A program made the position numbers and the translations under genes. A DNA stretch of 64,000 nt from Gautieria morchelliformis (Eukaryota > Basidiomycota > Agaricomycetes > Gomphales > Gomphaceae). The DNA lies in assembly GCA_015179125.1 (NCBI GenBank), contig WHVA01000107.1, forward strand, positions 124,001-188,000, read 5' to 3'. Positions 16,901 through 54,200 of the stretch are shown here, in pieces. Each line of letters begins with the position of its first letter. The first letter of the stretch is position 1. The notes beneath the pieces were generated by a model. It saw only the letters and a list, made by a program, of their open reading frames with translations, was not told where the DNA came from and made no database searches.

Positions 16901-17929
16901 TGTCAAGATTGGTTTTTAGGCATTAATATCGTGTATTAGTGAACACAGCGAATGCCTGAATAGCTTGTGCAAAGAAGTGTGCCGTTCGGCGAAGAAGGTG
17001 AACCAATAAATGTTCAGAAGGTAAGAGGGCTGCCTGAACGGAGCTCACCCTATCTACAGTCGTAGTGAAGTAGCCTGTGACACTTGACAATATAACGTGC
17101 AAGGTGTCATGGAAAGGTTGTTAAGCGGCAACAATCCTTTCACTGGCGAAGGTGCTCCTTCGGAGCCCTTCGCTGACAGCGCCAATAATAGTATGAAGGC
17201 TAAGGTAATGAAGGTGAAGCACAAAAACTCACCAGTGGTGCTTAAGTCCTCCTCTGGTCAAAGATAGGAATCTACAGGAGAGGGCTCAAGGTGATGGTCA
17301 CAGTGAGGTCAAGTTTTGCACAAGATAGACGTATGATAATTGAACTGCAGAATGTACATGCAAATGTAAATTACTTATACCGAATGCTCATATGATATCA
17401 GCGAATAGGAAAGAGGCCGTCATGAGTCAGGGTTGGATAGGGGTGCGCAGTCAGTATACAAATAGGTGAAACACATATACAATAGAAATAAGGAGGAGTG
17501 CGAATGTGAAATGACGGGGAGGAAAGAGGACAAAGGTACCTATGTACGAAAACACACCTTGAGACCTGCATACATGTTACCCTGCACCGACTCTTGGTCT
17601 GCTGGGTTGATCCCACACGATCTACGGGTAGGACATCCCGCGAATGCATTCCGGCCATAGGGATACCCAAAGGGGATCAGTCGGGAAGATGATGGGGCCC
17701 GTGATGAACCATCACACCGGGTAAAGGATGTTGATCATGTTTGATGGCGTGCCTACTGGTGAATGATGCAAGTAGTGAATGGTCATTCGGCGAATGCAGC
17801 GAAGAGCGAATGGAGCGAAGATAGAGGAGGAGTGGTGGAGGGGAAGGGTGAAGTCGAGTGAACATAGAGGAGGAGTGGTGAAAGGGAAAATAGGGATAGC
17901 TGGGTACAAGAAATGAATGGGTCATGACA
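16901..17929 (-). mobile_element. LTR-A, reverse orientation
   Basis: The reverse complement of the LTR-A seen at 12651-13608: it runs from TGTCATGAC (17929-17921) to AATCTTGACA (ending 16901) and shares the 'aaggtgctccttcggagccc' block and the 'attaatatcgtgtattagtg' end. It directly abuts the chromodomain end of the Gypsy relic. The flanks show no clear 5-bp target duplication. Solo LTR or one end of a rearranged element. Confidence 0.65.
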
Positions 17930-33231: not shown

Positions 33232-34212
33232 CGCGTTAATGATCGTCAGATGCTCCACAGGAAGAAGGTCACTTTGATCCCTCCACCCCCAACCCACTTA
33301 GACATATCAGATGGCTCATATAGATATGACCTGCATGGTGTCTCTGTCGTGCAGTCGTAGCACATCATGTAAGAGGAGACGAACGTTCCCCCAAGCTTCC
33401 TGTGATAGTACATCAGGGTGTCCTGTAGAGCTTGTCATGTGGCTCATTCGACATGCAAAACAGTGCGGCTTCCCTTGCTCGCGTTTCGCTAGAGCTTTTC
33501 ATGCGTGTACACAGGAAGGACGTAAGTCATGCACGTGGTGCGACACGCTCATAGGGCTTCTCGTAACTACGTAGTGAGGTCTGCAAGACTGCACGCACCA
33601 CACTCTGGACGGTATATGACGGTTGTTTATGAGCTCTATGTAATCCCCGGTAGCCTCATCACAGCACACGACTGTTCGCCTGTTCCCTATGCGCCCAATG
33701 ACATGCGACATGGTGTCCTCTGTACTCATCCTAAAGGAATGGGCTGCCTGTGTATTCTTCTTCTAGGAGCGTATAACATAATTGGATCTGTCCTTCTCGC
33801 ATGGAAGGACTGTTATCATAAGGGTCCTCTCATGAGCCCAGTTAAAGGCTATATACTATGTATTACAGGAAGTGTGGACTTTGTGCCCGTACCTCAGGTC
33901 AGGATATGCGCGGTCCGGTGAGCAATATTATATTTCCGCTCGACTTTCGGCTCATTTCGTCGCGGGGAGCGTCACTTGGCGTTGCCCCGTTGCAAGAACC
34001 ACATATCACACGGAAGCGACTACAGAATTGAAGTGCATGCTTCGCGCGGTGTTGTGTGACGGTAAGTTAACTGCATTTAGGCATATGCGCCACCTGGTAT
34101 ATGAAAAATACACAAGAAATGAAGGATGATAGTGCAGCCAATTAACAGTTTCTGTGAGTGGGTCAAGGTCAGGCACGACAAAGTCCACAAGATAAAAGCC
34201 AAAAACAAGATG
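33232..34212. other. Intergenic, with a segment shared with 40280-40365
   Basis: About 85 bp at 33476-33560 (tgctcgcgtttcgct ... gcgacacgctcatagg) recurs with changes at 40280-40365 in the spacer of the inverted duplication. No gene recognised. Confidence 0.45.
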
Positions 34213-34339
34213 CAAAGACATCCACTGCCATTCCTCAAGTTGCTATGTCTTCCACCACCATCATTGTAGTGTGATGTAACTCCCTGCAAGTTGACCCCAC
34301 AGCATCAACAAGAGTTTCTTGTATGAACCAGTGGCATGC

Positions 34340-35866
34340 ACGTACATAAGCTCACACGCCCATCCATGCCACTTGTAGCCAGCATGTGCCCTGTCAGGCT
34401 CAGGTCAACTACACATTTGTGCATCCCCATGCACACATTGAGCAATGAGAAATGATGAGTTGCACACACACATGCATGCAAAGGCACTGGGACGTACCAC
34501 CAGACCTGTGCCCATGCAGGATGAGTTGCACTTCCCCTGTGCGCAGGTCCCAGAACCGTACACTCCGGTCATCTGAACCTGATACAACCCACTGGTTGTC
34601 AGGAGACACGGCAATGGAGCGTACCACATCCTACATTCACACTAATGAGTGTCACCGCTCGCGAAGAATGAAGATATGCAGCGAGCAAAGGAGAAGATGG
34701 AAATGCAGGGGAAATGGCCTGCGACAAACCTTGTGTCCCCTAAACTCAACCATACACACACACTCCCCTTTGTTCAGGCTGCCCTCATCCTTTAGCAGTG
34801 ATTCCATGTCCTCTACACCCACTTCACATGGCTGCCTCAATTCCCTTCTCTGCATATTCCTCAGCAGCGGCCCCAAATCCCAGTGCTTCATGGTCTGATC
34901 CTTGCTACCACTGATGAGACCCTTCCCGTCAGGTGTGAATGCCACACTGGACACGTTGTCAATGTGGCCCACAAGGCGATCGACGAGTTGCCCTGTCTGG
35001 ACATTCCACAGGCACACGATAGTGTCATGGTAGCCTGCAGCGACTAGGGCCCCATCAGGAGAGACAGCAACAGAGAGTATTCTGGTGCTGAGCTACATAT
35101 TGCAGGGCCAAAAACACAAAACATACCATACCCAGGCATCAACACCCCAAATAAGCAAAACAATGTGTGTCAGTATGCCACATGTGATGAGACGTGACAA
35201 TAACACGCACATGCACTGGTTCTGTCATTGACAGTGACTTGTGCTGTCCGGTCTCCACGTTCCAGATGTGCATGGTGTCATCCCAGGAGGTGGAGAAAAT
35301 GAGGCGGCCATCATGTGAGAAGTCAAGGGAAAAACAACCCCTTTGATTATCCTCAAGTATGGAGAGGACGCGCTTGTTGGCAATGTCCCAGATCTGAGAG
35401 TGATGTGGGGCGAAGGGATGTGCAAGTTGTGAGGGATAATGTGCAGGTGAAAGGAAACATATAGTCCATGGATGAGCATGGATTGCAGGAATTAGAGTGA
35501 ATTGAGGAGGCAAAGGGGTAAATAAAGTGTCAGCACACAACATGAGGAAACATGCAATCTAACCTTGATTTTGTACGAGCCTGTTGCGAGAAGCTTCCCA
35601 TCGGGGCTGAAGCACACACCATGATAGCTAGCGGTGTCATGGGCAAGCACACTTTGTTCAAGTGTGGTCAATGTGTGGGGGAGAAGAGGGAAAAGGGAGA
35701 GGTGCAGGAAAGATGAGGTGATCACTCACCATGTCCTTTCCCCCATGGCTGTGTCATATATTTGTGCAGAACGAAGGCGCCCTATCGCAAGGTAGCACCC
35801 ATCAACTGAGAAACGGATGCATGTTATGCTGCTAGAAATGCTGGGTTAGTATGGAACTGCTAGATG
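34340..35866 (-). pseudogene. Tup1-like WD40 propeller fragment (left arm)
   Basis: Exons on the - strand read [162 protein letters not shown] and VDLSLTGHMLATSGMDGRVS. The order and spacing, including the long insert before RSIAVSP, match the seven-blade C-terminal propeller of the corepressor Tup1. The N-terminal Ssn6-binding helix and a convincing start are missing, so I treat it as a partial or decayed copy. It follows the receptor gene on the same strand; whether they were ever one transcript is unknown. Confidence 0.6.
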
Positions 35867-35871
35867 GAAAG

Positions 35872-36351
35872 TGTCAGGGGACACCCTGTTTTCCATTTCC
35901 AGTTCCGACACCACACCCAGTTCCGACTCCATTTCCGACTCCGGTTCCGGTTCCGATTCCATCTCCGCATCCGCTTTCGGGAACGATTCCGCTTCTGGGA
36001 GAACTTCCACCAGTTCCGTTCGCCTTGCCAGTTCCACTCCAATTTCCGACTTCCGCCCCGGAACAGTGTCGGAAATCAAGCGACTCGCATAATAGGTGGC
36101 ATCAAGGGTCGATCAAGGGTCAGGGGGATGCAGGGTTGATGGCGGGTGCCAAGTGTTGTCCCTGGCTGCGCAGCGTAGTATAATACGGGCTCGCTGACAT
36201 TGGGGGTCCTTAGACTTTTCTCTTTGGATTTCCCCTTGTCAGGTGAGAACCCCCTCTCTTGTATGCTCTGTTCATTTATACATACTTTGGATTTCCCCTT
36301 GTCAGTTGTGTGGTAGTGTGATCTCCACGACTAGCCAGGGTTGCCCTTACA
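35872..36351 (-). mobile_element. Solo LTR, family B
   Basis: A 480-bp element, on the - strand TGTAAGGGCAACC...CCCCTGACA, with a perfect 5-bp target duplication (GAAAG at 35867-35871 and 36352-36356 on the + strand). The matching place in the right arm (about 44320) is uninterrupted. Its middle carries a TTCCGATTCC-type repeat that produces Phe/Pro or Ser/Asp rich frames. Other copies: 46577-47027 and 47571-50346. Solo and non-coding. Confidence 0.85.
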
Positions 36352-36514
36352 GAAAGGAGACAATGTGAATCAAATTGAAGCCTTATCTAGCCATCAAACT
36401 CCACAAACCAAACCAACTCAGCCATGGCAACTCACCGCATCCAAGGACCATGCTTCAGTGTATGCCTCAAATCCACATCTACTTGATGCTGTGGTACATG
36501 TTTGCAGAAAGTCA

Positions 36515-39500
36515 CTACCCATCCTGATCCCTAGAGAGGGGAATGAGCACATGGGGAGATAAAAAAGCAGAAAATGTCTGGCAAAAGCAGCAACACACCC
36601 ATTTCAACTCTGGCAATGCCGTATCTGGGTTCATGTTATGGACTGCTGCAGCTGTCTCCACCAGCAATGAGGCAATTGCATCATGACCATGCACCACTGC
36701 TGCCTGCAGTGCACCACCATATATGCCTCCTTGAGCATTGACATTAGCACCCCTCCTGATGAGCAGTTGAACTATTGTGTCACAACCACTTTCCACAGCT
36801 GCCTGTAGCGCATTGCCATAATATCCACCTTGGGCATTTACATCCGCATCCTTGTCTAGGAGCAACTGAACAGTTGTATCATGACCTCGTAATGCTGCTG
36901 CCTGCAGCGCACTCCTAAAGTGTCCTCCCTGCAAGTTCACGTTGGCACCATTCTCTAGGAGTAATCTGACAGTTGTATCATGACCCTGTAGTGCCGCTGC
37001 GTGCAGTGCACTACCATAGCGTCCTTCCTGCACTGCATTCACATCAGCACCCTTGTCTATGAGCAACTGGGCAGTCGTATCATGACCCTCTAATGCCGCT
37101 ACCACCAGTGCACTCCCATGCATTTTTCCATAAGCATTCACATCCGCACCATTCTCTATGAGCAACCAGACAGTCGCATCCTCACCCTGTCCTGCCGCTG
37201 CCTGCAGCGCACTCCCAATGTATCCTCTCTGTGCATTCACATCCACTCCCTTCTCTAGGAGCAACCGGACAGTTGTATCAGCACCCTGTGATGCTGCTGC
37301 CTGCAGTGCACTACCATAGCATCCTCCCTGTGCATTCACATCCGCACCATTCTTAATAAGTAACTGGACAATTGTATCATGATGCTGTGATGCTGCCGCC
37401 TGCAGGGGAGTGCCACAGTATCCTCCAGGTGCATTCACATCAGATCCTTTCTGCAACAGATATTGGCATGCTCTTTCCAACCCAGTTTCAGTTGCGACAT
37501 AAAGAGGCGTCTCCCCATCGCTCTGATCATAAAGCTGCATCCAGTTGGCATAAACAGCACTCATGGGTTCTAAGAGAGCAATGGTCAGCCGGTGTAGGTC
37601 ATCTGAGTCACCAGCCTTGTCTGCTCCAGCATGACCCATCCAGTGATTTGCAGCATAGTGAGATAGTGGATAGGACCTGGCTGTGTTTGAGTTTACACCC
37701 TTATTCTGGTCAAATTGCAGCAGGTATGCCAGACATGTCTTTGCAATGAATACATGTGCAACCTTTTCGTTAAAATAGTAACATGAAAGTGTGGTCATGC
37801 TTGTGCGAAGGGGTTCCGACATCAGATATTCTCGCACAGAAAAGTGTGCCAGTCTGACATCTCTTGCTTTAGTGAAGGGTACCTTGTCGTCATGGCGGTC
37901 AATACTGCCTTCACTATTGCTGTCCTCGTAGCCATCATCATCGGTGTTGCTACCCTCTTGGAATGTAATGGTGACAAGACTCGAGCATATAGTCAATATG
38001 TCGCCCGGATCCCGAAGCCGCTGACGCCGGTCAAACAGAGGTCCATCTCTTGCATCAGGATCCGTAGCGAGCACTTCCACAGCTTCATCCGTTGATAACG
38101 TGACCACAGAGAATGCGAGCCACTGCAGCAAACTCAGAGCATACCGCCTATCATCCTCATGGATAACAGCGAGAATTCGATCATACGTCTCGTTAAGCGT
38201 CTTTGGGAGACAGGTGAGTGCTTTCTCAAGCGCCGCAGGAGTTCTGCATCTCCGTAATGTGTCCAGTTGACAGACTGCCCATCGAAACCTTGCCATTCTA
38301 TCAGAAATCATTTACACACAAATAAATGACCACTCACATCCCATGCGCGCCTTGCGTCAAGGTAGTATTAACCATTTCCTTCCCATCTGCCGAGTACATG
38401 CTAAACTCGACATCCTCAACAAGTCTCCTGGAAACATACACTTGGATGTCGCCATCGACGAGACCCTCATCCATGGGTACCTCATGTGAAACCAAGCCAC
38501 TCAGCGCCTTTTGAATGTCTCCCTCTTTCCGACTTGTTGCCAGCAGGTGTAATGCATCCAGCTTCCAATCATGGCCCTCTCTGAGCACTTTCAGAAATCT
38601 AGATCGCTCTGGGCATTCGTCAAGCGCATCAAAAACAAGATATACGGCCTGGAAGCTCCCGATTACAGTTTTCAGGGTTGACATCAGGTCTTCGTGACTT
38701 GGGGCTCGCAGCGCATGACCCTGCTCATTCTTGGAGAATAGTGACTCCAGAGCGTGGGGGGTGCTCGCACATTGCATAGACAATTGCTCGATCAGAGATC
38801 GAAGCACGGCATCTGGCAGTGTGTCCTTGTTGTTAAAATCGAAGTAGAAAAATGCCATTGCTAAGGAGGAGTCGGAACGGCAGTGATCTGAAAGTTCTTC
38901 TATGATGGTAGAGCTGGATGGATTTTCGTTAGCATGATAGGATGGAGATGACGAAAAAGGTTATACACATACCATAGGATGCTTTTTCCCGCGCCAGCTG
39001 TGCCAGTGTATCAGCGGAAAGAACAAAACTCCCAGATTAGCTGACGCACGTATACCATGGAGCCAAAGGAACGAATGAGGGGTCTCTCTCCATTCCTGGA
39101 ATTGTTCTCCCTCTATGAACCATGAACCGGTCATCGCTTCTCGCATGTTACGGGCGTTTCTGTGCTTTGACGCGTGATCAGGAGCCGCCAGCCATTCATA
39201 GATCTTCTGACGATGTTCTTCTACATAACGAGGACGTCAGAAACGGAATCCCTTGGTGGGAGGCACTGGCGACGTGCGACTTACTCAATTTGGCCTGTTC
39301 CAAAGCCTGGCTTATCTCAGCAGTCTGTTCCTGCAAGGATTCGACGCCGCTATCTATCTTCACGGTCAAGCGACTGTCTACATAATCAGCACCGACTTGA
39401 AGGTAGCTGGTGCAACGTACGTCTGATCTACTTCCATGCTCATAGTCAACAAGTCTTGGAGCTTGCCTAGCCGGTCAAGAGTTTTGTGCACCTCGCTCTC

Positions 39501-39888
39501 CTTTAGGGGCCAGATCAAGGCTTGCATTCGGCGGCCTTTGCGTCCAAGCTCCCTTTGCAGGGTCGTATTGAGACTCTCCAGTTCGCCACCGCAACGAAGA
39601 AGTAGCTCATTCAAAGCCGGTAATCGGGAGGATGCCGCTGTCTCATCCTCTTCTACTAGTCGACGAATAGTCTCAAGTACTGTTTGGAGTCCAAGCAGCC
39701 GATGAATGATGATTTTCTTGTCCCTTGATGCATTCTTAACGCTACTCCCATAGCTGAGGCATGCACTGATAGTCGCTCCTGTGAGCTGGAGAACTGCAAT
39801 GACACTCGCTGATTGAGTGGTTAACACCCTACCAACGGTTCTGATAGGCTGTCGGTGACTCACCTGCTAATCCCAGAGCTGCAGCCAT
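36515..39888 (-). CDS. NACHT-ankyrin STAND/NLR receptor (left arm, apparently intact)
   Basis: Exon 1 39864-39888 (MAAALGLA), exon 2 39421-39808, exon 3 39285-39373, then about four more. The N-terminus reads SVIAVLQLTGATISACLSYG, like the HeLo/SesA-type N-terminal domains of fungal STAND proteins. Exon 4 ends WLHGI, and a 25-nt micro-exon completes the P-loop GIPGAGKS. Walker B is LVFDALDECPE. The last exon (38311-36515) holds a winged-helix-like region with KARDVRLAHFSVREYL, an acidic patch, and 9 ankyrin repeats of the type GADVNAQGG-YGSALQAAA. Predicted length is about 1030 residues. Splice phases are consistent in every junction I checked. Such proteins are thought to act as ATP-gated sensors in incompatibility or defence; ligand unknown. 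Confidence 0.8.
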
Positions 39889-39965
39889 AGTGTCGAGTTG
39901 ATTAGAGACTTAGAGTAGAGAGCACGGCGTTGCCGCGTGCAGTGTCCATATGGACCCACATCATC

Positions 39966-40659
39966 AAGGTCAAAAGACCGACGGCGCTTGCAATTCATGT
40001 TTCTGGTGCTTTTTCAGGAATTGCCATGAAAGAACAAGTAGAAACACCCTACTGAACTGCTTCGTCAAACCGGAGTTGGGGCCGACGCACTAGGAGTGCT
40101 GTTGCGAGCGTCGGGTTGCGATAGCCTATAAGGTGTCCGTCACTGATTAGCAATGTAAGCGATGTCGATGGGTTCCCAGTGCCTGATTGGCTATTCAGAT
40201 CGGGCTACCCCTCAGAGCCGCACAAATCACAATGCCCAAAAAGGACCTCACATTGACTCAATTGTCGTCATAGCCCCTCTGCTCGCGTTTCGCTACTTTC
40301 GTGTATACAGGAGATCCGAGAGACGCAAGTTATGTGCATGCTGCGACACGCTCATAGGCCTTCAGGGATGTCATAATGCATGACCTTCTGATAGAATTCA
40401 TAAGGATATCCTCCGCAATGGGTCGTATGGAAGACGTGCAGAGATCCCATCCCCTTGCCATAAAGCCTAGTGGCGTGTAAGGTCGGGTGAAGGTAAACTG
40501 GCATTCTTATACTTATTATCCCTTACGTATCATACACGGCGTGTAAACTCGGTGCAAGTTTCGCTGATGTGTGTACATGTGGAGAGAGAGAAAGTCAAGT
40601 ATAGTGCAGCCACCCTATGATAATATAAGGCAATAAAAGTAAGAGGGCGATGTACCCGC
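39966..40659. other. Spacer of the inverted duplication
   Basis: Contains receptor promoter-like sequence. About 40080-40270 (gttgcgagcgtcgg ... ctcaattgtcgtcatagc) matches 53940-54135 upstream of the third receptor copy. About 40280-40365 matches 33476-33560. No gene in it. Confidence 0.55.
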
Positions 40660-40732
40660 AGACTCATGGTGGCACCTGGGTCCATGTGGACACCAATGGC
40701 TTCTTCCATTCAAACTGGTCTTGAAATAATGA

Positions 40733-43700
40733 GACAGCGGCATCCTTCCGATTACCGGCTTTGAATCTCTTCGTTGCGGTGGTGAACTCGAGAGTCTCAA
40801 TACGACCCTGGAAAGGGACCTTGGACGCAAAGGCCGCCGAATGCAAGCATTGATCTGGCCCCTAAAGGAGAGCGAGGTGCACAAGGCTCTCGACAAGCTA
40901 GGTAAACTCCAAGACTTGTTGACTACGAGCATGGCCGTAGATCAGACGTACGTTGCACCAGCTACCTTCAAGTTGGTGCTGATTATTCAGACAGTCGCTT
41001 GACCCTGAAGATAGGTAGCGGTGTTGAATCCTTGCAGGAACGGACTACTGAGATAAGCCTGGCTATGGAACAGGCAAAACTGCGTAAGTCGCCATGTCGC
41101 AAGTGCCTCATACCGCGGGATGCCGTTTCTGACGGCCTCGTTATGTAGAAGAACATCGCCAGAAGATCCAGAAGATCTATGAATGGCTGGCGGCTCCTGA
41201 TTACGCGTCAAAGCATAGAAACGCCCGTACCATGCGACAAGCGATGACCGGTTCATGGTTCATAGAGGAAGAACAATTCCGAGAATGGCGAGAGACCCCC
41301 CATTCGTTCCTTTGGCTCCACGGTATACGTGCGCTAGCTCTGGGTGTTTTGTTCTTTCCGCTGATACACTGGCACAGCTGGCGCAGGCAAAACCATCCTA
41401 TGGTATGTGTATAACCTTTTTTCGTCATCTCCATCCTATCATTCTAACGAATAAATCCGTCCAGCTCTACCATCGTCGAAGAACTTTCAAATCACTGCCA
41501 TTCCGACCCTTCTCTGGCAATGGCATTTTTCTACTTTGATTTTAACCACAAGGACACGCCGCCAGATGCCGTGCTTCGATCTCTGATCGAGCAATTGTCT
41601 ATGCAATGTGTGAGCACCCCCCAAGCTCTGGAGTCACTATTCTCCAAGAACGAGCAAGGTCATACGCACCGAGCGCCAGGTCAAGAAGACCTGATGTCAA
41701 CCCTAAACTCTATAATCGGGAGCTACCAGGCTGTGTATATTGTTTTTGATGCACTTGACGAATGCCCAGAGCGATCTAGATTTCTGAAAGTGCTCAGAGA
41801 GGGCCATGATTGGAAGCTGGATGCATTACACCTGCTGGCAACAAGTCGGAAAGAGGGAGACATTCAAAAGGCGCTGAGTGGCTTGGTTTCACATGAGGTA
41901 CCCATGGATGAGGGTCTCGTCGATGGCGACATCCAAGTGTATGTTTCCAGGAGACTTGTTGAGGATGTCGAGTTTAGCATGTACTCGGCAGATGAGAAGG
42001 AAATGGTTAAGACTGCCCTGACGCAAGGTGCGCATGGGATGTGAGTGGTGGTCATTTATCTGCGCGTAAATGATTTCTGATAGAACAGCAAGGTTTCGAT
42101 GGGGTGCAGGACTCCTGCAGCGCTCGAGAAAGCACTCACCTGTCTCCCAAAGACACTTAACCAGACGTACGATCGAATTCTCACTGCTATCCATGAGGAT
42201 GATAGACGGTATGCTCTGAGTTTGCTGCAGTGGCTTGCATTCTCCGTAGTCACGTTGTCGATGGATGAGGCTGTAGAAGTGCTCGCTACAGATCCTGATG
42301 CAAGAGAGGACCTCTGTTTGACCGGCGTCAGCGGCTTCGGGATCCGGGCGACATATTGACTATATGCTCGAGTCTGGTCACCATTACATTCCGAGAGGGT
42401 AGCAACACCGATGATGATGGCTACGAGGACAGCAATAGTGAAGGCAGTATTGACCGCCATGACGACAAGGTACCCTTCACTAAAGCAAGAGATGTCAGAC
42501 TGGCACACTTTTCTGTGCGAGAATATCTGATGTCGGAACCCCTTCGCACAAGCATGACCACACTTTCATGTTACTATTTTAACGAAAAGGTTGCACATGT
42601 ATTCATTGCAAAGACATGTCTGGCATACCTGCTGCAATTTGACCAGAATAAGGTTGTAAATTCAAATACAGCCAGGTCCTATCCACTATCTTGCTATGCT
42701 GCAAATCACTGGATGGGTCATGCTGGAGTAGACAAGGCTGGTGACTCGGATGATCTACACCGGCTGATCATTACCCTCTTGGAACCCATGAGTGCTGTTT
42801 ATGTCAACTGGATGCAGCTTTATGGTCACAGCAATGGGGAAAATCCCCTTTATGTTGCAGCGGAGACTGGGTTGGAAAGAGCATGCCAATATCTGTTGCA
42901 GAAAGGATCAGATGTGAATGCACCTGGAGGATACTGTGGCACACCCCTGCAGGCGGCGGCATCACGGGGTCATGATACAATTGTCCGGTTACTCCTTGAG
43001 AAGGGTGCAAATGTGAATGCTCGCGAAGGAGGCAGTAGGAGTGCGCTGGAGGAGGCGGCATCGCGGGGTGATGATATGACCATCTTGTTGCTCCTCGAGA
43101 AGGGTGCAGATGTGAATGCTCATGGAGGACACTTTGGGAATGCCATACAAGCAGCAGCATTACGAGGTCATGATACAACAATCCGGTTGCTCATAGAGAA
43201 GGGTGCAGACATGAATGCGCAGGGAGGGCGCTATGGGAGTGCACTACAGGCAGCGGCATCATGTGGTCATGATATGACTGTCCAGTTGCTCCTTGAGAAG
43301 GGTGCAGATGTGAATGCACAAGGAGGACACTTTGGGAGTGTGCTGCAGGCAGTGGCATTACAGGGTGATGATGCAACTGTCTCATTGCTCCTCGAGAAGG
43401 GTGCAGACCCAAATGCTCATGGAGGGCGCTTTGGTAGTGCACTGCAGGCAGCAGCATTACGGGGTCATGATACAACTGTCCGGTTGCTCCTAGAGAAGGG
43501 TGCAGACCTGAATGCTCATGGAGGAGAGGATGGGAATGCATTAGAGGCAGCAGCATCAAGGGGTCATTATACTACTGTCCTGTTACTCCTAGAGAAGGGT
43601 GCAGATGTGAATGCTCATGGAAGAAAGCATGGGAGTGCGCTGCAGGCAGCAGCATCAGGGGGTCATGATATGACCGTCAAGTTACTACTAGAGAATGGTG

Positions 43701-44068
43701 CAGATGTGAATGTGCAGGGAGGACACTATGGGGGTGCACTGCAGGCAGCAGCATTACGAGGCCATGATATGACTGTCCAGTTGCTACTAGACAAAGATGC
43801 GGATGTGAATTCCCAAGGTGGATATTATGGCGATGCACTAAAGGCAGCTGTGGAAAGTGGTTGTGATGCAATAGTTCAGCTGCTCATTGGGAGGGGGGCT
43901 AACGTCAATGCTCAAGGAGGTGTGTATGGTGGTGCACTGCAGGCAGCAGTGGTGCATGGTCATGATGTGATTGCCTCATTGCTTGTGGAGATGGGTGCAG
44001 GGGTCCATAACATGAACCTACATATGGCATTGTCCGAGTTGAAGTGGGTGGGTTGCCACTTTTGCTAG
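40733..44068 (+). pseudogene. NACHT-ankyrin receptor (right arm, broken)
   Basis: Mirror of the left-arm gene. It starts in the middle of exon 2 (gacagcggcatcc), so the MAAALGL start is lost. The P-loop is completed as GIPGAGKT by the micro-exon near 41375, followed by the NACHT exon 41480-42042 with IVFDALDECPE. Relative to the left arm about 28 nt are missing near 42101 (the CQLDTLRRC region) and one base near 42306, so the frame breaks twice. The long last frame (42356-44068) stays open and holds 12 ankyrin repeats, three more than the left arm. Parts might still be translated as a shorter protein, but the full receptor is not encoded. Confidence 0.8.
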
Positions 44069-44329
44069 ACATCTCCCGTTTTTTTTTACCTCCCCATGTG
44101 CTCATTCCTCTCTCTAGGGATCAGGTTGGGTAGTGACTTTCAGCAACCATGTCTCGCAGCGTCGAGTAGATGTGAATTTGAGGCATGCACTAAAGCATGA
44201 TCATCGGAGGTGGTGAGTCACCATGGCTGAGTTGGTTTGGGGCTATTGGTTTGGTTTACGAAGTTTAACTGCTCAATAAGGCTTCAATTTTAATCATCTC
44301 ACTCGTCACCTTCTGTCTAGCAGTTCCAT

Positions 44330-45880
44330 ACTCACCCTGCACCATCTAGTGGTGTGGACTGTGTCTGTTTCTCAGCAGATGGACACTCTCTTGCAATGGG
44401 GTGCTTTCGTTCTGTGCAAATATATGACACAGCCACAGGGGAAAGGACATGGTGAGTGATTGCATTGTCTTTTGCTTTGTCTCCCCTGAACCTCTCCTTT
44501 TCCCCGCATCTACGTTGCCAATTGACCATGCTCAAACAAGTGTGCTTGCCGATGACACTGCTCTCTTCAATCCTAGTGTGTGTTTCAGCCCTGATGGGAA
44601 GCTTCTCGCGACAGCTGCACATGATTCCAGTGTTAGAGTGTGTTTTTCCTCATATCATGTGCTGACACTTTAATTACCTCTTCACCAACTCCCTGATTCC
44701 CTCTAATTTCCACAATCCATACCCATCCACTGACTATGCATTTCCTTTCACCAAACACCTACCCCTTACAACTCGCACATCTATTCGCCCCACATCATGC
44801 TCAGGTATGGGACATTGCAAACAAGCGCATCCTCTCCATATTTGAGGGTCATCAACAGGGTGTTTTCTCCCTTGAATTCTCACATGATGGCAGCCTCATC
44901 TTGTCACTATCCTGGGACAACACCTTGCACATCTGGAACAGGGAGACCAGGCAGCACAAGACACTATCTATCACAGAACCAGTGCCTGTGCGTCTTATCA
45001 TCATGTATTGTCACATGTGGCATGCTGATACATGGTGTCATGCTTATGTGGGGTGTTATGCTTGTGTGGGGTGTTGACACATGGGTATGGTGTGTTTTAT
45101 GTTGGTTTAATTGCAACATGTAGCTCAGCTCCAGTGTATTCTCTGTTGCCATCTCTCCTGATGGGGGCATAGTTGCTGCAGGCTACCGTGATAATATTGT
45201 GCGCCTCTGGGATGTCCAGACGGGGCAACTCATCAATCGCCTTGTTGGTCACATTGACTGTGTGTCCAGTGTGGCATTCACACATGATGGAAAGGGTCTG
45301 GTCAGTGGGAGCAAGGACCAGACAATGAAGCATTGGGACTTGGAGCCATTGCTAAGCAATATGCAAAGAAGGGCATTGAGTCAGTCATGTGAAGTGGGTG
45401 TAGAGGACATGGACTTGACACTAAAGGAGGACAGCAGCCATAACAAAGGGGAGTGTATGTGTACAGTTGAGTTTAGAGGACATGAGGTATGTAGCAGGCC
45501 ATTTCCCTTGTGTTTCATTCTTATCCTTTGCTTGCTGCCGGGGCTTGTAAATATTCTTTCTTCACATTGGTGATACTCATTAGTGTGAATGTAGGATGCC
45601 GTGCGCTCCATTGCTGTGTCTCCCAACAACCAGTGGGTCATATCGGGTTCAGATGACCGGAGTGTGCGGTTGTGGGACCTGCGCATGGGGAAGCACAACT
45701 CATACTGCACGGGCACAGGTCTGGTGGTATGTCCCAGGACATTGCATGCAACTCATCTCATTGCTCAATGTGTGCATGCATACATGCACATGTAGTTTGT
45801 TCTGTTGATCTGAGCCCAACAGGGGACATGCTGGCTTCATGTGGCTTGGATGGGCGTGTGAGATTATGTACGTCCCAGTC
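44330..45880 (+). pseudogene. Tup1-like WD40 propeller fragment (right arm)
   Basis: Mirror of 34340-35866: GVDCVCFSADGHSLAMGCFR, SVCFSPDGKLLATAAHDSS, VWDIANKRILSIFEGHQQGV, NTLHIWNRETRQHKTLSITE, VRLWDVQTGQLINRLVGHID, QTMKHWDLEPLLSN, RSIAVSPNNQWVISGSDDRS and VDLSPTGDMLASCGLDGRV. It keeps the characteristic Tup1 phrase on DNA-side blades (GHQQ-VFSLEFSHDG; KGLVSGSKDQTMKHWDL). It lacks the N-terminal part of Tup1 and an obvious start. No LTR-B between it and the receptor. Confidence 0.6.
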
Positions 45881-46012
45881 ACTCATTCCCACAATAAACC
45901 CTTGTTGATGCTGGGGTATTGACTCACAGGGAATTACACAACATTATAATGATGGTGCTGGAAACATATCAACTTGAGCAATGGCAGTGGATGTCTTTGC
46001 ATCCTCCCCACC

Positions 46013-46490: not shown

Positions 46491-46576
46491 GTATATTCAG
46501 ACTCTCTACCCCCTGCATATCCTTCTCTTTCACCATATCTATGACTACCCATGCCCATACTACCTTACAAGCCATC

Positions 46577-47027
46577 TGTAAGGGCAACCCTAGCTGGTTG
46601 TGGAGGTCACTCCACCACACAACTGACAAGGGGAAATCCGAATTATATATCTAAATGAACAGAATACACAAGAGAGGGGATTCTCACCTGACAAGGGGAA
46701 ATCGAAAGAGAAAAGTCTAAGGACCCCCAATGTCAGTGAGCCTATATTATACTACACTAGTCTGCAGCCAGGGACAACACTTGGCACTCACCATCAACCC
46801 TGCATTGCCCTGACCCCTGACCCTTGACCAACCCTTGATACCACATACTACACAAGTCACTTGACTCCCAACACTGTTCCGAAGGCGGAAGTTGGAGAGT
46901 GGAGTGGAATTGGCAGAGCGGATCGAACTGGTGGGAGTTCCCCCAGAAGCGGAACCATTTCTGAAAGTGAAGTCGGAGATGGAACCGGAGTCTGAAATGG
47001 AAGTGGAACTCAAGGTGTCCCCTGACA
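46577..47027 (+). mobile_element. Solo LTR, family B
   Basis: 451 bp, TGTAAGGG...CCCCTGACA, with a perfect 5-bp target duplication CCATC (46572-46576 and 47028-47032). Solo and non-coding. Confidence 0.85.
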
Positions 47028-47308: not shown

Positions 47309-48449
47309 TTTTTTTTTTTCCTTTTTTTTTTTTTATAATCCAATTTTTACATCTTTTGGGGCAGCACGCTATAAGACAGTGAATACAGTCCTCTATCCTA
47401 TTTGCCATTCCTTCTCACCCTTGGTTTCTCTCTCAGCTTGCGCTCTTTGGGCAAAGCCCTGAGCATGTCTGTGCCTATGTTGGTGGGGTGTGTCCTTGCA
47501 CCTCCACATTCCCATTATGCTGGATAGGTCTCCATGTGACTTCTCTAACCTCCACATATCATGCACATTCTGTAAGGGCAACCCTAGCTAGCTGTGGAGA
47601 TCACACTACCACACAACTGACAAGGGGAAGTCCAAAGTATATACATAAATAAACAGAATATACAAGAGAGGGGATTCTCACCTGACAAGGGGAAATCTGA
47701 AGAGAAAAGTCTAAGGACCCCCAATGCCAGTGAGCCCGTATTATACTACACTAGTCCACAGCCAGGGCCATGTCATGAGTCATTTATTTCTTGTATCCAG
47801 TAACCCCATTTTCCCTTTCATCACTCCACCTCTATGTTCACTCCATTCGCTCTTCGTGCCAAATTCACTGAACGGTTATTCACTACTTGCATCATTTGCC
47901 AGTAGGCATGCCATCAAACACAATCGACATCCTTTACCCAGCGTGATGGTTCATCACTGGCCCCATCACCTTCCCGACTCAACCCCCTTTGGATGTTCCT
48001 ATGGCCAGAATGCATTTGCAGGACGTCCTACCTGTTGATCGTGTGGGATCAACCCAGCAGACCAAGAGTCCATGCAGGGTAACATGTAGGTCTCAAGGCG
48101 TGTTTTCTTACATAGGTACCTTTGTTCTCTCCTCCCCTCTGTTGTTTCATGTTCACACTCCTCCCTTCCTCTATTGCACATATGTCTATCTTGTGCAAAA
48201 ACTTGACCTCACTGTGACTATCGTCTTGAGCCCTCTTCTATAGACTCGTATCCTAGACCAGAGGAGGACTTAAGCACCACTGTGAGTTTTCGTACTTCAC
48301 CTTCATTACCTTAGCCTTCATACTATTATCGGTGCTGTCAGCGAAGGGCTCCGAAGGAGCACCTTCAAAGGTGAAAGGATTGTCACTACTAGACAACCTT
48401 TCTGCGAGACCTTGAATGTTACATCGTCAAGTATCATGGGCTATTTTGA

Positions 48450-48758
48450 ATGGTTCCCATGCTCCGACCACCATCTGCCGGCGCAGAAAACAGTGAAACT
48501 ACTCCCTCTGTACCTACAGACACCATCCATAATACTCTCAGCACCCTATATGAGCTAATCCATAGCATAGCCATCCCTAAAACAAGGGCCGCAAAGACCT
48601 GCACTATCCCTATCGACACATTACATAGCACTCGCGATCTAATCTCCTCTGCATGGGAAACAATTGAGACGTCCTACTTCAGCTCACATGTTTCAAACAT
48701 CTGCCAAAAGCTGGATGCAATTTTGACACACATAGATAGGCCTTACAGCATCCCCTAA
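48450..48758 (+). CDS. LINE 1 ORF1, N-terminal frame
   Basis: 102 residues from an ATG one base inside the insertion (MVPMLRPPSAGAENSETTPS ...). A Ser/Thr-rich start is followed by a helical stretch (TLSTLYELIHSIAIPKTRAA). It ends at a stop at 48758; the next frame starts at 48844, so ORF1 is probably split by one frame change. Confidence 0.5.
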   Translation: MVPMLRPPSAGAENSETTPSVPTDTIHNTLSTLYELIHSIAIPKTRAAKTCTIPIDTLHSTRDLISSAWETIETSYFSSHVSNICQKLDAILTHIDRPYSIP

Positions 48759-48843
48759 CAAGCCCTCTTACGCGTCAGTCCTAGCCAGCCCACCAACACA
48801 CGCGACACATATCAAACCTCACCGCGACACCAAACACCATATC

Positions 48844-49647
48844 ATGCTGTCACAGATCGACCGACAGAACCCAGCCCTTGCGGGCTTCCTGGACTCAGAG
48901 TTGAGGAAAGAGATCAACAAAGCCCTGGTCCTGCGATTCTGGGACCCAGACCCTCAAGGAGAGGAGGAAGAGGAGAGTTTACTTTGTATCCGAGCTGCAG
49001 GACGACACCGAAGCGGCGATATATGGATAGCCGCAGGCTCAGAGCATGAGCACAATGCGATAATCAGGAAAGCTCACCGATGGCTCCCGGTCCTATCAAC
49101 AAACCTACGCATCACCCCAAAGACTTACCCGGTGATTGTTCATACCATTCCCACTTCGTTTAATCCTGATCGAGACAGTGATGACATCGCTACACTATTG
49201 GACAACAACAAGCACATCATTCCCCATCCTTCCATGCTGCAACATGCCAAATTCGTCTCCCGCTCTCCACAGCAACGCCAGAAGGCACACTCATCCCTTG
49301 TCCTATACCTAACTGACCATAATGCATCCAACAACTGCATCCAACAACATGTTGCATACCGAGGGTGTCTTCACTCAACAGAACAGTTCATACGGCATCC
49401 ACCGCAATGCTTCAACTGCCACCAGTTAGGTCACTTTGCACAGTCATGCAAGAATGCCCCAAAGTGTGGAACATGTGCTGGTCTACACTCTACACGTGAC
49501 TGTAAGTGCCCAAACCAGAGTGCATGCCAAGAGGCGGTCTGCCCGCATGTGACGCCGAAATGTGCACTGTGCGGAGGCCCCCTATGCAGCGACCAACCAC
49601 AAGCTATGCAACACCCGCAAATCTATCATCAAGCAGCATGGCCGTGA
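48844..49647 (+). CDS. LINE 1 ORF1, RNA-binding and zinc-knuckle frame
   Basis: 267 residues. The middle (RSGDIWIAAGSEHEHNAIIR ... PVIVHTIPTSFNPD) resembles the RRM-like part of fungal LINE ORF1. A CCHC knuckle (CFNCHQLGHFAQSC) is followed by CGTCAGLHSTRDC and further Cys pairs. The role in the family is binding the element's RNA. It ends 250 bp before the tail. Confidence 0.7.
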   Translation: MLSQIDRQNPALAGFLDSELRKEINKALVLRFWDPDPQGEEEEESLLCIRAAGRHRSGDIWIAAGSEHEHNAIIRKAHRWLPVLSTNLRITPKTYPVIVHTIPTSFNPDRDSDDIATLLDNNKHIIPHPSMLQHAKFVSRSPQQRQKAHSSLVLYLTDHNASNNCIQQHVAYRGCLHSTEQFIRHPPQCFNCHQLGHFAQSCKNAPKCGTCAGLHSTRDCKCPNQSACQEAVCPHVTPKCALCGGPLCSDQPQAMQHPQIYHQAAWP

Positions 49648-52600
49648 CAACATGAAAGAGGATGGACTGTACCACATATAATGACAGAACCGAATGGTTG
49701 CGCAAGAGACGCAACAAAACTAACACCCTCGCCCACACAGGCATGGACATGCCCAGGGCTTCGCCCATGGTGCACAAGCAGAGATAGAGAACTAAAGGCT
49801 AGATAGAACACATGTTGACTGGCACACTGTAGCAATCATCTTACATAGGGCCATGCCCCAAAAGACGTTAAATTGGATTTAAAAATATAAAAATAAAAAA
49901 ATGGGCTATTTTGCTACGACTGTAGATAGGGTGAACTCCGTTTGGGCAGCCCTACCTTCTGAACATTTATTGGTTTATCTTATTCGCCAAACTACACACT
50001 TCGTTGCACAAGCCATTCAGGCATTCGCTGTGTTCACTAATACACAATATTAATGCTTAAAACCTGATCTTGACAGGCCAACACTTGGCACCTGCCATCA
50101 ACCCTGCATTTCCCTGACCTCTCTGGCCCTTGACTGACCCATGATGTTGCATACTACACAAGTCACTTGACTTCTGACACTGTTCCAAAAGTGGAAGTTG
50201 GAGGATGGAGAATGGAGCCGAATTGGCAAAGTGAATGGAATTGGCGGAAGTTCTCCCAGAAGCAGAAATATTTCTGAAAGCAAAGTTGGGAATGGAAATG
50301 GAACTCGGGATGGTGTCTGAACTGGAACACAGGGTGTCCCCTGACAGATGGGCCCATCAGTGCTGGGCCATGCATGCCTGGATTTGTGTCACACTTGACT
50401 ATCAAGCCTGCTATGTTATCAGTACAAAACATGTTGTCCACTCTAGTCTAGTTTTTTGTGGACATCGACTGGAGGGTTGGGATGTGTTTCAGCAGTGCCA
50501 TGGTCATGATTTAGTCGGCCAGGAGTGTGATCAGCTTTTCTGCCTCTCTAGTTGCCATGGCTGTGAACAGGTGATGGTTTTGTTCTTCATCCCACATAGG
50601 GTGGTGGCAGTTGAAGTCCTCACACCATAGCATAGCATCTGAGTCAACCTGAATGATGTTGTGCCTTTCTCCGTCAATGAATTGATCCAGGTGGTGCATG
50701 GTGTCCAAGTGCATGCAGTTGTTGTATACGTTGAAGATTGTGGTCTTGCCCTGTGGGTGTTTGATCTGAATGACTGTGACATTGTTTGAGCCTGTAAAAG
50801 AAAGTTGTGTCCATGAGTTGGTGTTGAGTGCCCCATTCACTAAGATAAGCAAGCACTTTGCAGAGTCATTAGTCAAGTGAGACGTGGGGTAAAGTACATG
50901 CCAGTGGTGATTGGCTCTAGTGTTGCCCAGGGTATTGGTGTAAGGTTCTTGGAGAAGCAGCAAGTCCCAGTCTTTGTGGATCCGCGAGTTGATGAGGTCA
51001 TATTGCACTTTGTTGGATTCATCCAGGTTTTATGTAGATTTTCAGCCTCTTTGGTGGGCCTAGCTCAATTCGATTTGGCATGGTGGCGGGGGTGATTTGT
51101 CATTGGGATGGTGGGGCCCCCAGTCGGTTGCCATTCGTTCTTGCACTGAGGGCTGGAAAGTAAGGGTAGACTGTCTGTGCGTACCTTTGCGATATGACAC
51201 CGTTTCCCATCCTTCTGCGTTGGACAGACCAATTGGTGGAGGTAGCATTAGCATCGGAGCAGCTATTCTGGGTGGTTGCGATACATGCGTCCAGGTCTGT
51301 TATAAGGTAGTATGGCATGAGGTTCTCCAGCAGCCTGTCGTCCATCTCGCTGCACCTGCATATGAAGGAGGGGCACAATCTGTCCCAGCTGGCATGAGTG
51401 CTAGCATCACATGAGACACAATGGAATTTGCTGGGGTTGGCGAAGGCCAACATCCTGTATCTGTTGCCACACGTGCCACAGGTGTAGGACATGTGTCCCC
51501 ACCCCTGACACTTCAGGCATCAAGTCGGCTCTTTTTGCACTTCTACTCTTTTTTGGCAGATGGTTATCCCATTGGTCAGAACCTTGTCTGCGACCTCTGG
51601 GCTGGTGAGTGTGATGAGCGCATGGCCGCACATCTGGTCAGCGATCGGCGGTGCGTGGGCTTCAGCCATTTGGCCCTGTCAATGGCACCGCAGGGGAGCC
51701 TATTGACGTTTTTGACGTGCCTGTGTTCATTGTCCTTGTCCGGGCCGAGGTGTAGGGGGATGAACAGGATCACTAGTGGGAACAGCCTGGTTTTACCCTT
51801 GCTTCTGGTGCTAGCGCTTCAGTGAATAGTATTCTGTGCTGAGCTTCGTTGATCCACAAGGCCGCCCCCTCTGAGTCCAGCTCGAATAGGACCCCCCCAT
51901 TGACCAGTCGTGCTGACGACGGTATGCGTGTGTTCTGACCCTATGGCGCTCAGGACCTCGTTGGCCCTCTTAGCCAGGCCCGCATTGTCCATCTCCGCCA
52001 AGATCTGTGTGCCGGCGTCCGCAGCATGGACTAGGATCTGTCGCTGCTTGACTCCTTCCCGCACACGGACCCTCGCGACGAGGGTTGATGCCATTGTGAT
52101 GGTGGCTGATGCGGCTTGGGGCAGGGCGGCTGCTTTGGTCACCGCGTCCTTGTAGGTGGTGGTGGTTTCTCTGAGCTGCGACACCATCGTAGTGACCGTC
52201 GACGTTGCTGCTTGGATGGACAGCACTGCCGCTGCCACGTCCTCCGTGACCTTTTGTGCTGCGTGGACTACACATTCCATCGCCACCTTCATATTCTTGA
52301 CTACTGCTTCGGCCTCTTGTATTTTCGCCATGAGCGCACTGCTTTCCCCCATGAGCTGGGTCTTTACGCGGTCGGCAATTCTATCTCCTTTAGAATCGTC
52401 GTCTATCGGTTCCAGCACAAAAGCTATAGACCTCCGCGCGGCTGATCCCCTTGTATTGTGTGACTTGGAGTATAGCCGTGGTCATGGTGTCGATTGTCCA
52501 CGGTGTTCCTGGTACGGTCAGTAATGTGTGTTCTAAGTAGCGTTTACCTTCCTCTATGTTCTTTATCTCTTGGTCTGGTAGTTCTCTTATCATCTCAAGC

Positions 52601-52958: not shown

Positions 52959-53701
52959 AAAAGGGTTCATAGACTTACCATAGGATGGTTTTCCCCGCGC
53001 CTGCTGTGCCAGTGTATCAGCGGAACGAACAAAACTCCCAGAGTAGCTAGCGCACGTATACCATGTAGCCAAAGGAACGAATGAGGGGTCTCTCGCCATG
53101 CTTGGAATTGTTCTCCCTCTATGAACCATGAGCCGGTCATCGCTTGTCGCATGTTACGGGCGTTTCTATGCTTTGACGCGTAATCAGGAGCCGCCAGCCA
53201 TTCATAGATCTTCTGGATCTTCTGGGGATGTTCTTCTACATAACGGGGCGGTCAGAAACGGCATCCCGCGCTAGGAGGCACTGGCGAGCTGCGACTTACA
53301 CAATTCCACACAAGAAATTGAGTATTCAAGCCAATTGGTGCGCCTGTTCCTGCAAATATTCGACACCACTATCTATCTTCACGTGAGACTCTCCAGTTCG
53401 CCGCCGCAACGAAGAAGTAGCTCATTCAAAGCCGGTAATCGGGAGGATGCTGCTGCCTCATCATCTTCTACTAGTCGACGAATAGTCTGAAGTACTTTTT
53501 GGTCCAAACAGCCGATCAATGATGATTTTCTTGTCCCTCGATGCATTCTTGACGCCGCTCCCATAGCTGAGGCATGCGCTGATAGTCGCTCCTGTGAGCT
53601 GGAGAACTGCAATGACACTCGCTGATTGAGTGGTTAACACCCTACCAACGGTTCTGATAGGCTGTCGGCGACTCACCTGCTAATCCCAGAGCTGCAGCCA
53701 T
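52959..53701 (-). pseudogene. Third NACHT-ankyrin receptor copy, 5' fragment
   Basis: The start codon is at 53701-53699 (MAAALGLA again), with SVIAVLQLTGATISACLSYG at about 53620-53560 and PALNELLLRCGGELESL at about 53440-53390. After that the piece of exon 2 encoding LNTTLQRELGRK...VDQT is missing and exon 3-like sequence follows. Exon 4 (RQAMTGSWFIEGEQFQAWRE) and the P-loop micro-exon region (about 52990) are present. LINE 2 then begins in the next intron. Nothing of the rest of NACHT or the ankyrins is found beyond LINE 2. Broken and truncated. Confidence 0.8.
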
Positions 53702-54200
53702 AGCGTGGAGTTGGTTAGAGTAGCGTGCACAGCGTTGCCGCCTGCATTGCCACTTCGATGGAGAAGCCATCGTGTCCACATGGACCCACTAGAAAACTCA
53801 CAAAATTTTGTAAAGACCGACGGCGCTTGCAATTCGTTTCTGGTGCTTTTTCAGGAACTGCCATGAAAGTACAAGCCTGAAACACCATAATGAACTTCTT
53901 CATCAACCCACAGTTGGGGGCTGATGCACTAGTGGCGTTGTTGCGGGCGTCGGATACGATAGCCTATAAGATGTCCGTCGAAGCATGCGATGGGCGTTGT
54001 CCACTTCTGTGACTGATAAGCAATGTATGTGATGGGTTCCCAGTGCCTGATTGGCTATCCAGATCGGGCTACCCCTAAGAGCCACACAATCACAGCCCAA
54101 AAAGGAACTCACATGGACTCAATTGTCGTCATAGCACCGTGAATCTCAAACACAACAACTAGCCTCGTACGACCACCTCCACCTCGAATTCCTCTCTGAA
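53702..54200. promoter_or_regulatory. Shared 5' region of receptor copy 3 and AhpC/TSA copy 2
   Basis: The two genes are head to head, 499 bp apart. About 53760-54135 matches 39940-40270 upstream of the left-arm receptor (cctgattggctatccagatc... and the CCAAT-like gattggct). A divergent promoter is inferred from layout only. Confidence 0.45.

What the first reader, a model, noticed from the sequence alone, without database searches (positions are those of the whole stretch)
34213..46003. Large inverted duplication of an NLR plus Tup1-like pair
Arms of about 5.5 kb mirror each other around a spacer of about 0.7 kb. Both carry the same gene order. Near-palindromes of this size can drive gene conversion and hairpin-mediated rearrangement, a ready source of new receptor alleles.
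Basis: seen in the sequence. Interest (0 to 1): 0.75.

Follow-up and report, generated by a model that had tools for sequence, protein, structure and literature searches.

The report
Fungal immune receptor with captured Tup1
The mirrored DNA is real, but each arm reads as one gene: a fungal immune-type receptor fused to the propeller of the gene regulator Tup1, with much of its binding face changed; the right-hand copy is broken.

Summary
The inverted arms are real (34209-39646 against 40729-46003; NLR part 88%, Tup1 part 79% identical). The "NLR plus Tup1-like pair" is best read as one gene: the left arm gives a 15-exon, 1,335-aa open model, N-terminal domain - NACHT - ankyrin repeats - Tup1 propeller. 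The supposed gap is an intron inherited from Tup1; 8 of 9 Tup1 introns recur. The right arm is a pseudogene. Of 44 Tup1-start loci, 31 have a NACHT upstream on the same strand; controls give 2 and 2 of 44. Blade positions -4 and +12 are identical between the fungus's Tup1 and yeast TUP1 (14 of 14), yet fused copies match Tup1 there at 0% and 6%. Both are among the codons under positive selection in HET-D/HET-E-type receptors. Likely reading: a captured Tup1 propeller turned into a variable sensor. Two arm-to-arm conversion tracts exist; no second head-to-head pair was found among 130 NACHT loci. No RNA evidence; positive selection is not proven; function is inferred.

The parts
34261..39888 (-). 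Left arm: one 15-exon gene model, 1,335 aa: N-terminal domain, NACHT (NPHP3_N), winged-helix-like region, ankyrin repeats, Tup1-derived WD40 propeller
   Evidence: GT-AG at all 14 introns, one terminal stop; Pfam
39864..39888 (-). Exon 1, MAAALGLA start
   Evidence: a comparable start in 11 of 14 loci modelled
39421..39808 (-). Exon 2, N-terminal helical domain (weak PigL_N match, below curated cut-off)
38973..39050 (-). P-loop WLHGIPGAGKSIL, split by the intron between exon 4 (39220-39050) and exon 5 (38997-38973)
38338..38913 (-). Exon 6, NACHT core
   Evidence: NPHP3_N E 1.4e-21
36599..38288 (-). Exon 7, winged-helix-like region and ankyrin array, ending ...ALPELKW at a GT donor
   Evidence: Ank_2 E 3.5e-65
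36531..36598 (-). Fusion intron (68 bp, phase 0), position and phase of the Tup1 intron between ELKKE and GSDW
36436..36530 (-). Exon 8, Tup1 linker GSGW...VDVDLRHTLKH
34261..35831 (-). Exons 9-15, seven-bladed Tup1-type propeller ending WSYITLQ-stop (Tup1: WSYTTLQ-stop)
35952..36353 (.). Repeat-element insertion inside the intron between exons 8 and 9, absent from the right arm
40737..46003 (+). Right arm: 5'-truncated, frame-broken copy of the same fused gene (pseudogene)
39889..40736 (.). Centre: left gene's upstream DNA (similar to 53812-54135); no other genome match for about 40364-40736, in a search that skips common words
38384..38624. Gene-conversion tract 1, left side (right side about 41754-41994)
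37699..37958. Gene-conversion tract 2, left side (right side about 42394-42653)
52959..53720 (-). Third fragment of the NLR 5' end (N-terminal and linker exons only)

Best explanation
Each arm is one gene of an amplified NLR family in which the C-terminal half of the corepressor Tup1, with its introns, was joined in frame to the end of a NACHT-ankyrin receptor. The left arm is an intact-looking member; the right arm is a 5'-truncated, frame-broken copy in inverted orientation, partly homogenised by gene conversion. Shown by sequence: arms, reading frames, shared introns, genome-wide association, altered top face, conversion tracts. Inferred: the gene is transcribed and spliced as one mRNA; the propeller binds a non-self or altered-self protein; binding drives NACHT oligomerisation and lets the N-terminal domain trigger cell death or restriction, as in HET-D/HET-E-type receptors.
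For: 15-exon, 1,335-aa open model with GT-AG at all 14 introns. In 10 of 10 loci aligned, the end of the ankyrin exon meets a GT donor and an AG acceptor at the Tup1 intron position (C846 has a stop just before it). 8 of 9 Tup1 introns recur. Of 11 fused copies read, 9 keep an open propeller frame (the left arm) and 5 are open end to end: L, C338, C352, C444a, C444b. 31 of 44 Tup1-start loci have a same-strand upstream NACHT; controls 2 and 2 of 44. Main NACHT and propeller clades agree and the fusion point is shared in 11 copies. dN/dS at 28 literature-defined sites 1.03-1.59 against 0.35-0.41 elsewhere. Yeast and own Tup1 agree 14 of 14 at -4 and +12; fused copies match at 0% and 6%. The tandem-WD40 NLR in the same window varies at -7, -6, -4, +12, +14. 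Conversion.
Against: No transcript data; a second promoter in or near the fusion intron is not excluded, and 2 of 11 copies (L, C134b) have an in-frame ATG in the last codons of exon 8. The dN/dS intervals at the variable sites include 1 (0.64-1.87, 0.82-3.04, 0.77-1.58, 0.87-2.09). At +14 the face pattern fails: yeast matches own Tup1 in 1 of 7, fused copies at 33%, and +14 (0.49) varies less than +5 or +15; the HNWD position 39, at +21 in my register, is not raised (0.31). In the C134 and L clades the propeller's dS also exceeds NACHT's (L-R 0.517 against 0.138), so part of its extra change is age or NACHT conversion. The left gene's ancestral exon-10 donor reads TT; my model uses a GT 6 bases upstream. 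The N-terminal domain reaches PigL_N only below cut-off. Of 130 NACHT loci only 31 were linked to a Tup1 start, and 13 of 44 Tup1-start loci have no linked NACHT, 3 of them in the Tup1 cluster on C419.
Confidence: 0.65

Rival explanations
1. Two separate, linked genes (NLR and Tup1-like WD40), kept adjacent as a receptor-guardee or sensor-helper pair.
For: Constant gene order and orientation at 31 loci would also fit a conserved pair; no RNA data; an in-frame ATG lies at the end of exon 8 in 2 of 11 copies.
Against: The Tup1-like part opens at an acceptor in Tup1's own intron position and phase, with the ankyrin exon ending at the matching donor in 10 of 10 loci; 9 of 11 copies show no in-frame ATG in exon 8 (models). 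Tup_N was found only on C419 and C1048.
Confidence: 0.12
2. Integrated decoy: the NLR carries Tup1's propeller as bait for an invader protein that attacks Tup1, and so keeps the Tup1 ligand face.
For: Candidate integrated decoys, such as a CHK-2 kinase domain, are described in fungal NLRs (PMC12258605, passages); plant SNC1 works with the corepressor TPR1 (PMC3801107, passage).
Against: A bait should keep the bound surface. Fused copies match Tup1 at 14% of the 28 core face positions (yeast 71%), but at 73% of other blade positions (yeast 59%). An arms race could also alter a bait, so this is not decisive.
Confidence: 0.2
3. Decaying duplicates: the family is drifting, and propeller divergence is relaxed constraint.
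For: Right arm and C846 are broken; C134a, C134c and C349 carry breaks. Propeller dN/dS is 0.39-0.73, above NACHT's in 12 of 12 matched pairs; intervals at face sites include 1.
Against: 9 of 11 propeller frames are open; other blade positions keep dN/dS 0.35-0.41; change is concentrated on the top loops (0.59 against 0.28 in bottom loops, 0 of 10,000 permutations). General decay would not single out the binding face.
Confidence: 0.12
4. Assembly artefact: the inverted arrangement is a mis-join.
For: No reads available; some contigs look like duplicate haplotypes (C15/C1023 give hits at a constant offset).
Against: Arms differ at 12-21% of positions, with lesions private to the right arm and centre DNA not matched elsewhere. 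Mirror artefacts give near-identical arms.
Confidence: 0.05

Closest known systems
HNWD/NWD receptors of Podospora anserina (HET-D, HET-E)
   Same: NACHT receptor with a C-terminal WD40 sensor. Their codons 7, 9, 25, 27 (strong positive selection) and 8, 26 (purifying) correspond by spacing to -6, -4, +12, +14 and -5, +13 here (PMC1805685, passages; seven-position list in PMC12222747, passage); -6, -4 and +12 are among the most variable here.
   Different: Their repeats are near-identical and evolve in concert; here seven unlike blades carry Tup1 introns. +14 and +21 do not stand out here. No HET domain matched; an ankyrin array precedes the propeller.
Fungal NLRs with non-canonical C-terminal domains (SPRY after ankyrin; CHK-2 kinase as candidate integrated decoy), Sordariales
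   Same: A domain of another gene at the C-terminus of a NACHT NLR; SPRY always with ankyrin repeats; a single integration was considered for the kinase (PMC12258605, passages).
   Different: The captured domain is Tup1's propeller, linked to 31 NACHT loci in one genome, with much of its ligand face changed.
Tup1 corepressor (yeast TUP1, PDB 1erj)
   Same: Homologous propeller (phmmer E 5e-51; repetitive WD40 chains such as 2ymu and the chain 5afu_3 score higher, and 5afu_3 aligns as a Tup1 sequence), 58.6% identical to this fungus's own Tup1, shared introns and C-terminal tail.
   Different: No Tup_N domain in the fused gene; ligand-face residues largely replaced; fused to an NLR.
Head-to-head NLR pairs
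   Same: Divergent neighbouring NLRs; 13 of 225 two-NLR clusters in Sordariales (PMC12258605, passages).
   Different: Here both come from the same gene family and the right one is broken and lacks its start, so not a sensor-helper pair.

Membership tests
Fungal NACHT NLR | NACHT/STAND nucleotide-binding domain with P-loop | tested here: met
   NPHP3_N E 1.4e-21 on the exon-6 frame; WLHGIPGAGKSIL across exons 4-5
Fungal NACHT NLR | C-terminal superstructure-forming repeats | tested here: met
   Ank_2 E 3.5e-65 and WD40
Fungal NACHT NLR | N-terminal effector domain of a known class | tested here: inconclusive
   PigL_N (PF17111; its earlier name Helo_like_N is my recall) 19.2 bits against cut-off 27.2; 13.2 and 15.8 bits in two paralogs
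Tup1 | C-terminal WD40 propeller, homologous and with shared introns | tested here: met
Tup1 | N-terminal Tup_N tetramerisation domain | tested here: not met
   Tup_N found only on C419 and C1048: 3 matches, 4 of 4 candidates scored
HNWD/HET-E family | N-terminal HET domain | tested here: not met
   no HET match at E up to 1 in 3 N-terminal sequences
HNWD/HET-E family | WD40 repeats of high internal identity | tested here: not met
   self-BLAST lists no internal repeat of 100 bp or more within the Tup1 part; seven unlike blades
HNWD/HET-E family | variation focused on top-face codons 7, 9, 25, 27 under positive selection | tested here: inconclusive
   clear for three of the four (-6, -4, +12), not for +14; dN/dS above 1 not significant
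NLR with integrated decoy | domain of another host gene in the same open reading frame | tested here: met
   from genomic sequence only
NLR with integrated decoy | captured domain keeps the surface an invader would attack | tested here: not met
   core face match 14% against 71% in yeast; assumes the top face is the attacked one
NLR with integrated decoy | binds an invader protein | not testable with these tools
   needs binding assays

The most novel reading that the evidence does not exclude
A housekeeping transcriptional corepressor was captured once by an NLR, and its propeller was converted into an allorecognition-type variable sensor, arriving independently at top-face residues that HET-D/HET-E also diversify, in a seven-blade propeller that does not use repeat shuffling.
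Probability: 0.52. Interest if true: 0.85.

Novelty: new variant of a known kind. Interest (0 to 1): 0.72.

Why it matters
If right, it shows where a fungal NLR sensor can come from: an essential host protein whose scaffold is kept and whose binding face is changed. Because the parent gene is present in the same genome and a yeast structure exists (1erj), each changed residue can be placed, which makes the origin of new recognition specificity directly testable. It also warns that intron-blind reading splits such fusions into apparent gene pairs. Overlap with the HET-D/HET-E positions would support those residues as a general recognition surface of WD40 NLR sensors.

Tried and rejected
Palindrome as a recent local inverted duplication: rejected. 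Against this, the NACHT tree joins L and R with support 0.999, but its stretch includes both conversion tracts; the propeller tree joins L with C846 at only 0.749. Divergent promoter serving two receptors: rejected, the right copy has no start. Two-gene pair: less likely after the intron comparison. The first pairing count from DNA hits, 23 of 56 NLR loci, was replaced by the protein count, 31 of 44 Tup1-start loci. Model troubles: my first exon 11-14 borders gave 14 stops, corrected; one search needed a frame skip in L (query opened inside the ankyrin array) and near blade 7 in C134a and C338, which one search did not need for those two; itself split L's long intron and needed a skip near L's blade 7, where one search has none. 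In one search some paralogs took a different phase at one intron (C338, C444b). Structure prediction was not run, because spliced proteins are not given letter for letter by the window. The organism was not identified. Rows dropped: one search excluded R and C846 (9 of 11 used); one search left C399 out of the NACHT tree and cut C846's propeller before its unrelated end; my sums leave out the three tract windows and the two last propeller windows, where C846 no longer matches. The hot positions were picked after seeing the data; their pooled dN/dS was 0.99 over four pairs, 0.71 for C349-C352 and 0.66 for L-R. One search uses only the four literature positions, in a register I assigned from spacing and the conserved V and D. 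The plant SNC1-TPR1 link is analogy only. Rivals are not mutually exclusive.
Full report
OBSERVATION. The window lies in a 122-Mb assembly of 1,113 contigs, at C80:124001-188000. Self-comparison confirms the inverted arms, 34209-39646 against 40729-46003, at 88.2%, 82.3% and 78.8% identity in three blocks (100-column profile). The centre without homology between arms is about 1.08 kb. Identity is lower in the Tup1-like part. At 12-21% divergence a simple mirrored-assembly artefact is unlikely.

ONE GENE, NOT TWO. Aligning ten loci from the end of the ankyrin array to the start of the WD40 region (both arms, C846, three on C134, C349, C352, two on C444) shows in 10 of 10 a GT donor after the ELK-like codons and an AG acceptor before GSGW-like residues; the spliced models place it in phase 0 in 10 of 11 copies, and in L. 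The fungus's own Tup1, found on C419 through its Tup_N domain, reads ...PSELKKE, intron, GSDWCAVFSKHVPQRRLDVNLVHTLEHE..., with the same phase-0 intron. Further introns follow in phases 2, 2, 0, 0, 0, 1, 1 in fused copies that are modelled to the end; Tup1 has these and one more. So 8 of 9 Tup1 introns in this region recur; in L one donor is displaced by six bases. Tup1 and L both end in WSY.TLQ and a stop. Exon 8 has no in-frame ATG in 9 of 11 copies; L and C134b have one in its last codons (models). The left arm yields a complete model of 15 exons, 1,335 aa, GT-AG throughout and one terminal stop. Weak point: the ancestral donor of exon 10 is TT in the left arm, and the model uses a GT six bases upstream.

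THE RIGHT ARM IS BROKEN. Homology starts at 40737, inside exon 2, so the start and first 64 codons are missing. A spliced alignment needs three frame skips in the NLR part and one in the propeller.

THE FAMILY. A protein search with the first two Tup1 exons gave 70 matches (117 of 117 candidates scored), merged to 44 loci; a NACHT search gave 132 matches at E up to 1e-12 (150 of 191 candidates scored), merged to 130 loci. Of the 44, 31 have a NACHT upstream on the same strand within 12 kb (range 1.6-8.1 kb; 29 within 4 kb); 2 of 44 have one downstream on the same strand and 2 of 44 on the opposite strand. Three of the 13 unpaired loci are on C419, at and near the canonical Tup1. NACHT counts are lower bounds, and both may include uncollapsed haplotypes (C15 and C1023 give hits at a constant offset). 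Of 11 fused copies read, 9 have an open propeller frame (L) and 5 are open end to end: L, C338, C352, C444a, C444b. NACHT and propeller trees recover the same main clades, and the fusion point is shared, which fits one capture followed by amplification. In the 10 kb read, C204, C197, C584, C689 and C670 show no Tup1 part by their NACHT and C399 has one only on the opposite strand; C250, C222 (two loci) and C316 showed only N-terminal pieces. C748, which no call fetched, has a weak Tup1 start 6.7 kb from its NACHT.

HOW IT PROBABLY WORKS. Relative to the F of FSPDG in each blade, nine propellers vary most at -8, -7, -6, -4 and +12 (0.65-0.85); top loops average 0.59 pairwise difference against 0.28 in bottom loops (0 of 10,000 permutations). 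In Podospora HNWD receptors codons 7, 9, 25 and 27 are under strong positive selection, 8 and 26 under purifying selection, and the four lie on the interaction platform (PMC1805685, passages); PMC12222747 lists positions 10, 11, 12, 14, 30, 32, 39 (passage). The spacing fits -6, -4, +12, +14 and -5, +13. The tandem-repeat NACHT-WD40 receptor in the same window varies at -7, -6, -4, +12 and +14, also at +27, and little at -8. Between this fungus's Tup1 and yeast TUP1, -4 and +12 are identical in 7 of 7 blades each; fused copies match Tup1 there at 0% and 6%. Over the four literature positions yeast matches 20 of 28 (71%), fused copies 14%; over other blade positions yeast matches 109 of 186 (59%), fused copies 73%. 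So the scaffold was kept and much of the face replaced. Against this: +14 is variable in Tup1 itself (yeast 1 of 7, fused 33%) and is not outstanding in the fused set (0.49; +5 is 0.55, +15 is 0.54), and +21, the HNWD position 39, is not raised (0.31). dN/dS at the 28 literature sites is 1.03 to 1.59 across four groupings of pairs, with intervals that include 1, against 0.35-0.41 elsewhere. Random six-position sets never reach the hot-set dN (0 of 2,000). In 12 matched pairs the propeller's dN is 2.4 to 5.4 times NACHT's and its dN/dS is higher in 12 of 12; but in the C134 and L clades its dS is also higher (L-R 0.517 against 0.138), so only in the C349 clade, where dS is mostly similar, is the comparison clean (C349-C444a dN 0.118 against 0.045, dS 0.202 against 0.198). 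A sensor is therefore favoured over a conserved bait, but positive selection is not proven.

ARM-TO-ARM CONVERSION. With C846 and C204 as outgroups, two tracts are identical between arms (38624-38384 and 37958-37699), where the arms differ from C846 at about 9-15% of sites. The longest agreeing run is 30 polymorphic sites against a mean of 7.2, 0 of 5,000 shuffles; the other five pairs give p of 0.075 or more. Outside the tract windows the three copies are close to a star (80, 74 and 63 pairwise agreements in the NLR part; 113, 149 and 129 in the propeller; my sums). One search finds one divergent NACHT pair within 8 kb among 130 loci, the present one; C689 has a diverged winged-helix/ankyrin remnant on the opposite strand upstream, which that count does not see.

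LITERATURE. Searches for NLR+Tup1+fungal+ankyrin+NACHT, NLR+integrated domain+fungi+Tup1 and NOD-like receptor+fungi+fusion+WD40+corepressor found 0 papers each; Tup1+NACHT found 8, none of whose titles concerns such a fusion (listing seen only, except PMC1805685, passages). The main texts of PMC4986451, PMC12258605 and PMC9815663 hold 0 occurrences of Tup1 (passages seen). The library is open-access only, so absence there is not proof of novelty.

VERDICT. New variant of a known kind: a fungal NLR carrying a captured Tup1 propeller with a changed face. The palindrome that drew attention is one broken, partly converted neighbour of an intact-looking member.

Noticed in passing
window 19322-22965 (-): A NACHT-WD40 receptor of the NWD kind with 13 anchored, near-identical 43-aa WD40 repeats, variable mainly at the sensor positions.
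   Followed up: partly
window 35952-36353, 46575-46989, 47568-47770, 50076-50346: A dispersed repeat of about 200-400 bp, one copy inside an intron of the left-arm gene.
   Followed up: no
window 48736-51519: Zinc-knuckle-like and endonuclease-reverse-transcriptase-like frames on both strands, below Pfam cut-offs, probably remains of retrotransposons.
   Followed up: no
window 12694-17886, with pieces at 47811-48446 and 49903-50076: Inverted and dispersed copies of another repeat, about 76-88% identical.
   Followed up: no
window 2340-2727, 4778-5453, 62655-62969: Short tandem-repeat arrays.
   Followed up: no
G000:C419:36591-47993: Canonical Tup1 with two further Tup1-start matches in the same orientation within about 11 kb, possibly tandem copies.
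   Followed up: no
L039 (C1048:118844-121951): A second, degraded-looking Tup_N match.
   Followed up: no
L018/L019 (C204) and L020 (C399): NLR copies whose nearby Tup1 pieces lie on the opposite strand 4-14 kb away, as if rearranged.
   Followed up: partly
L032 (C689) 221-1115 (-): A diverged winged-helix/ankyrin remnant running away from the NLR at 1663 onward on the other strand.
   Followed up: no
G000:C522:5301-5831 and C583:30207-30728: NACHT matches inside unusually long open frames (1,402 and 917 aa), with Tup1 starts downstream.
   Followed up: no
G000 C15/C1023, C362/C1053, C276/C484: Near-equal hits suggesting duplicate haplotypes in the assembly; family counts may be inflated.
   Followed up: no
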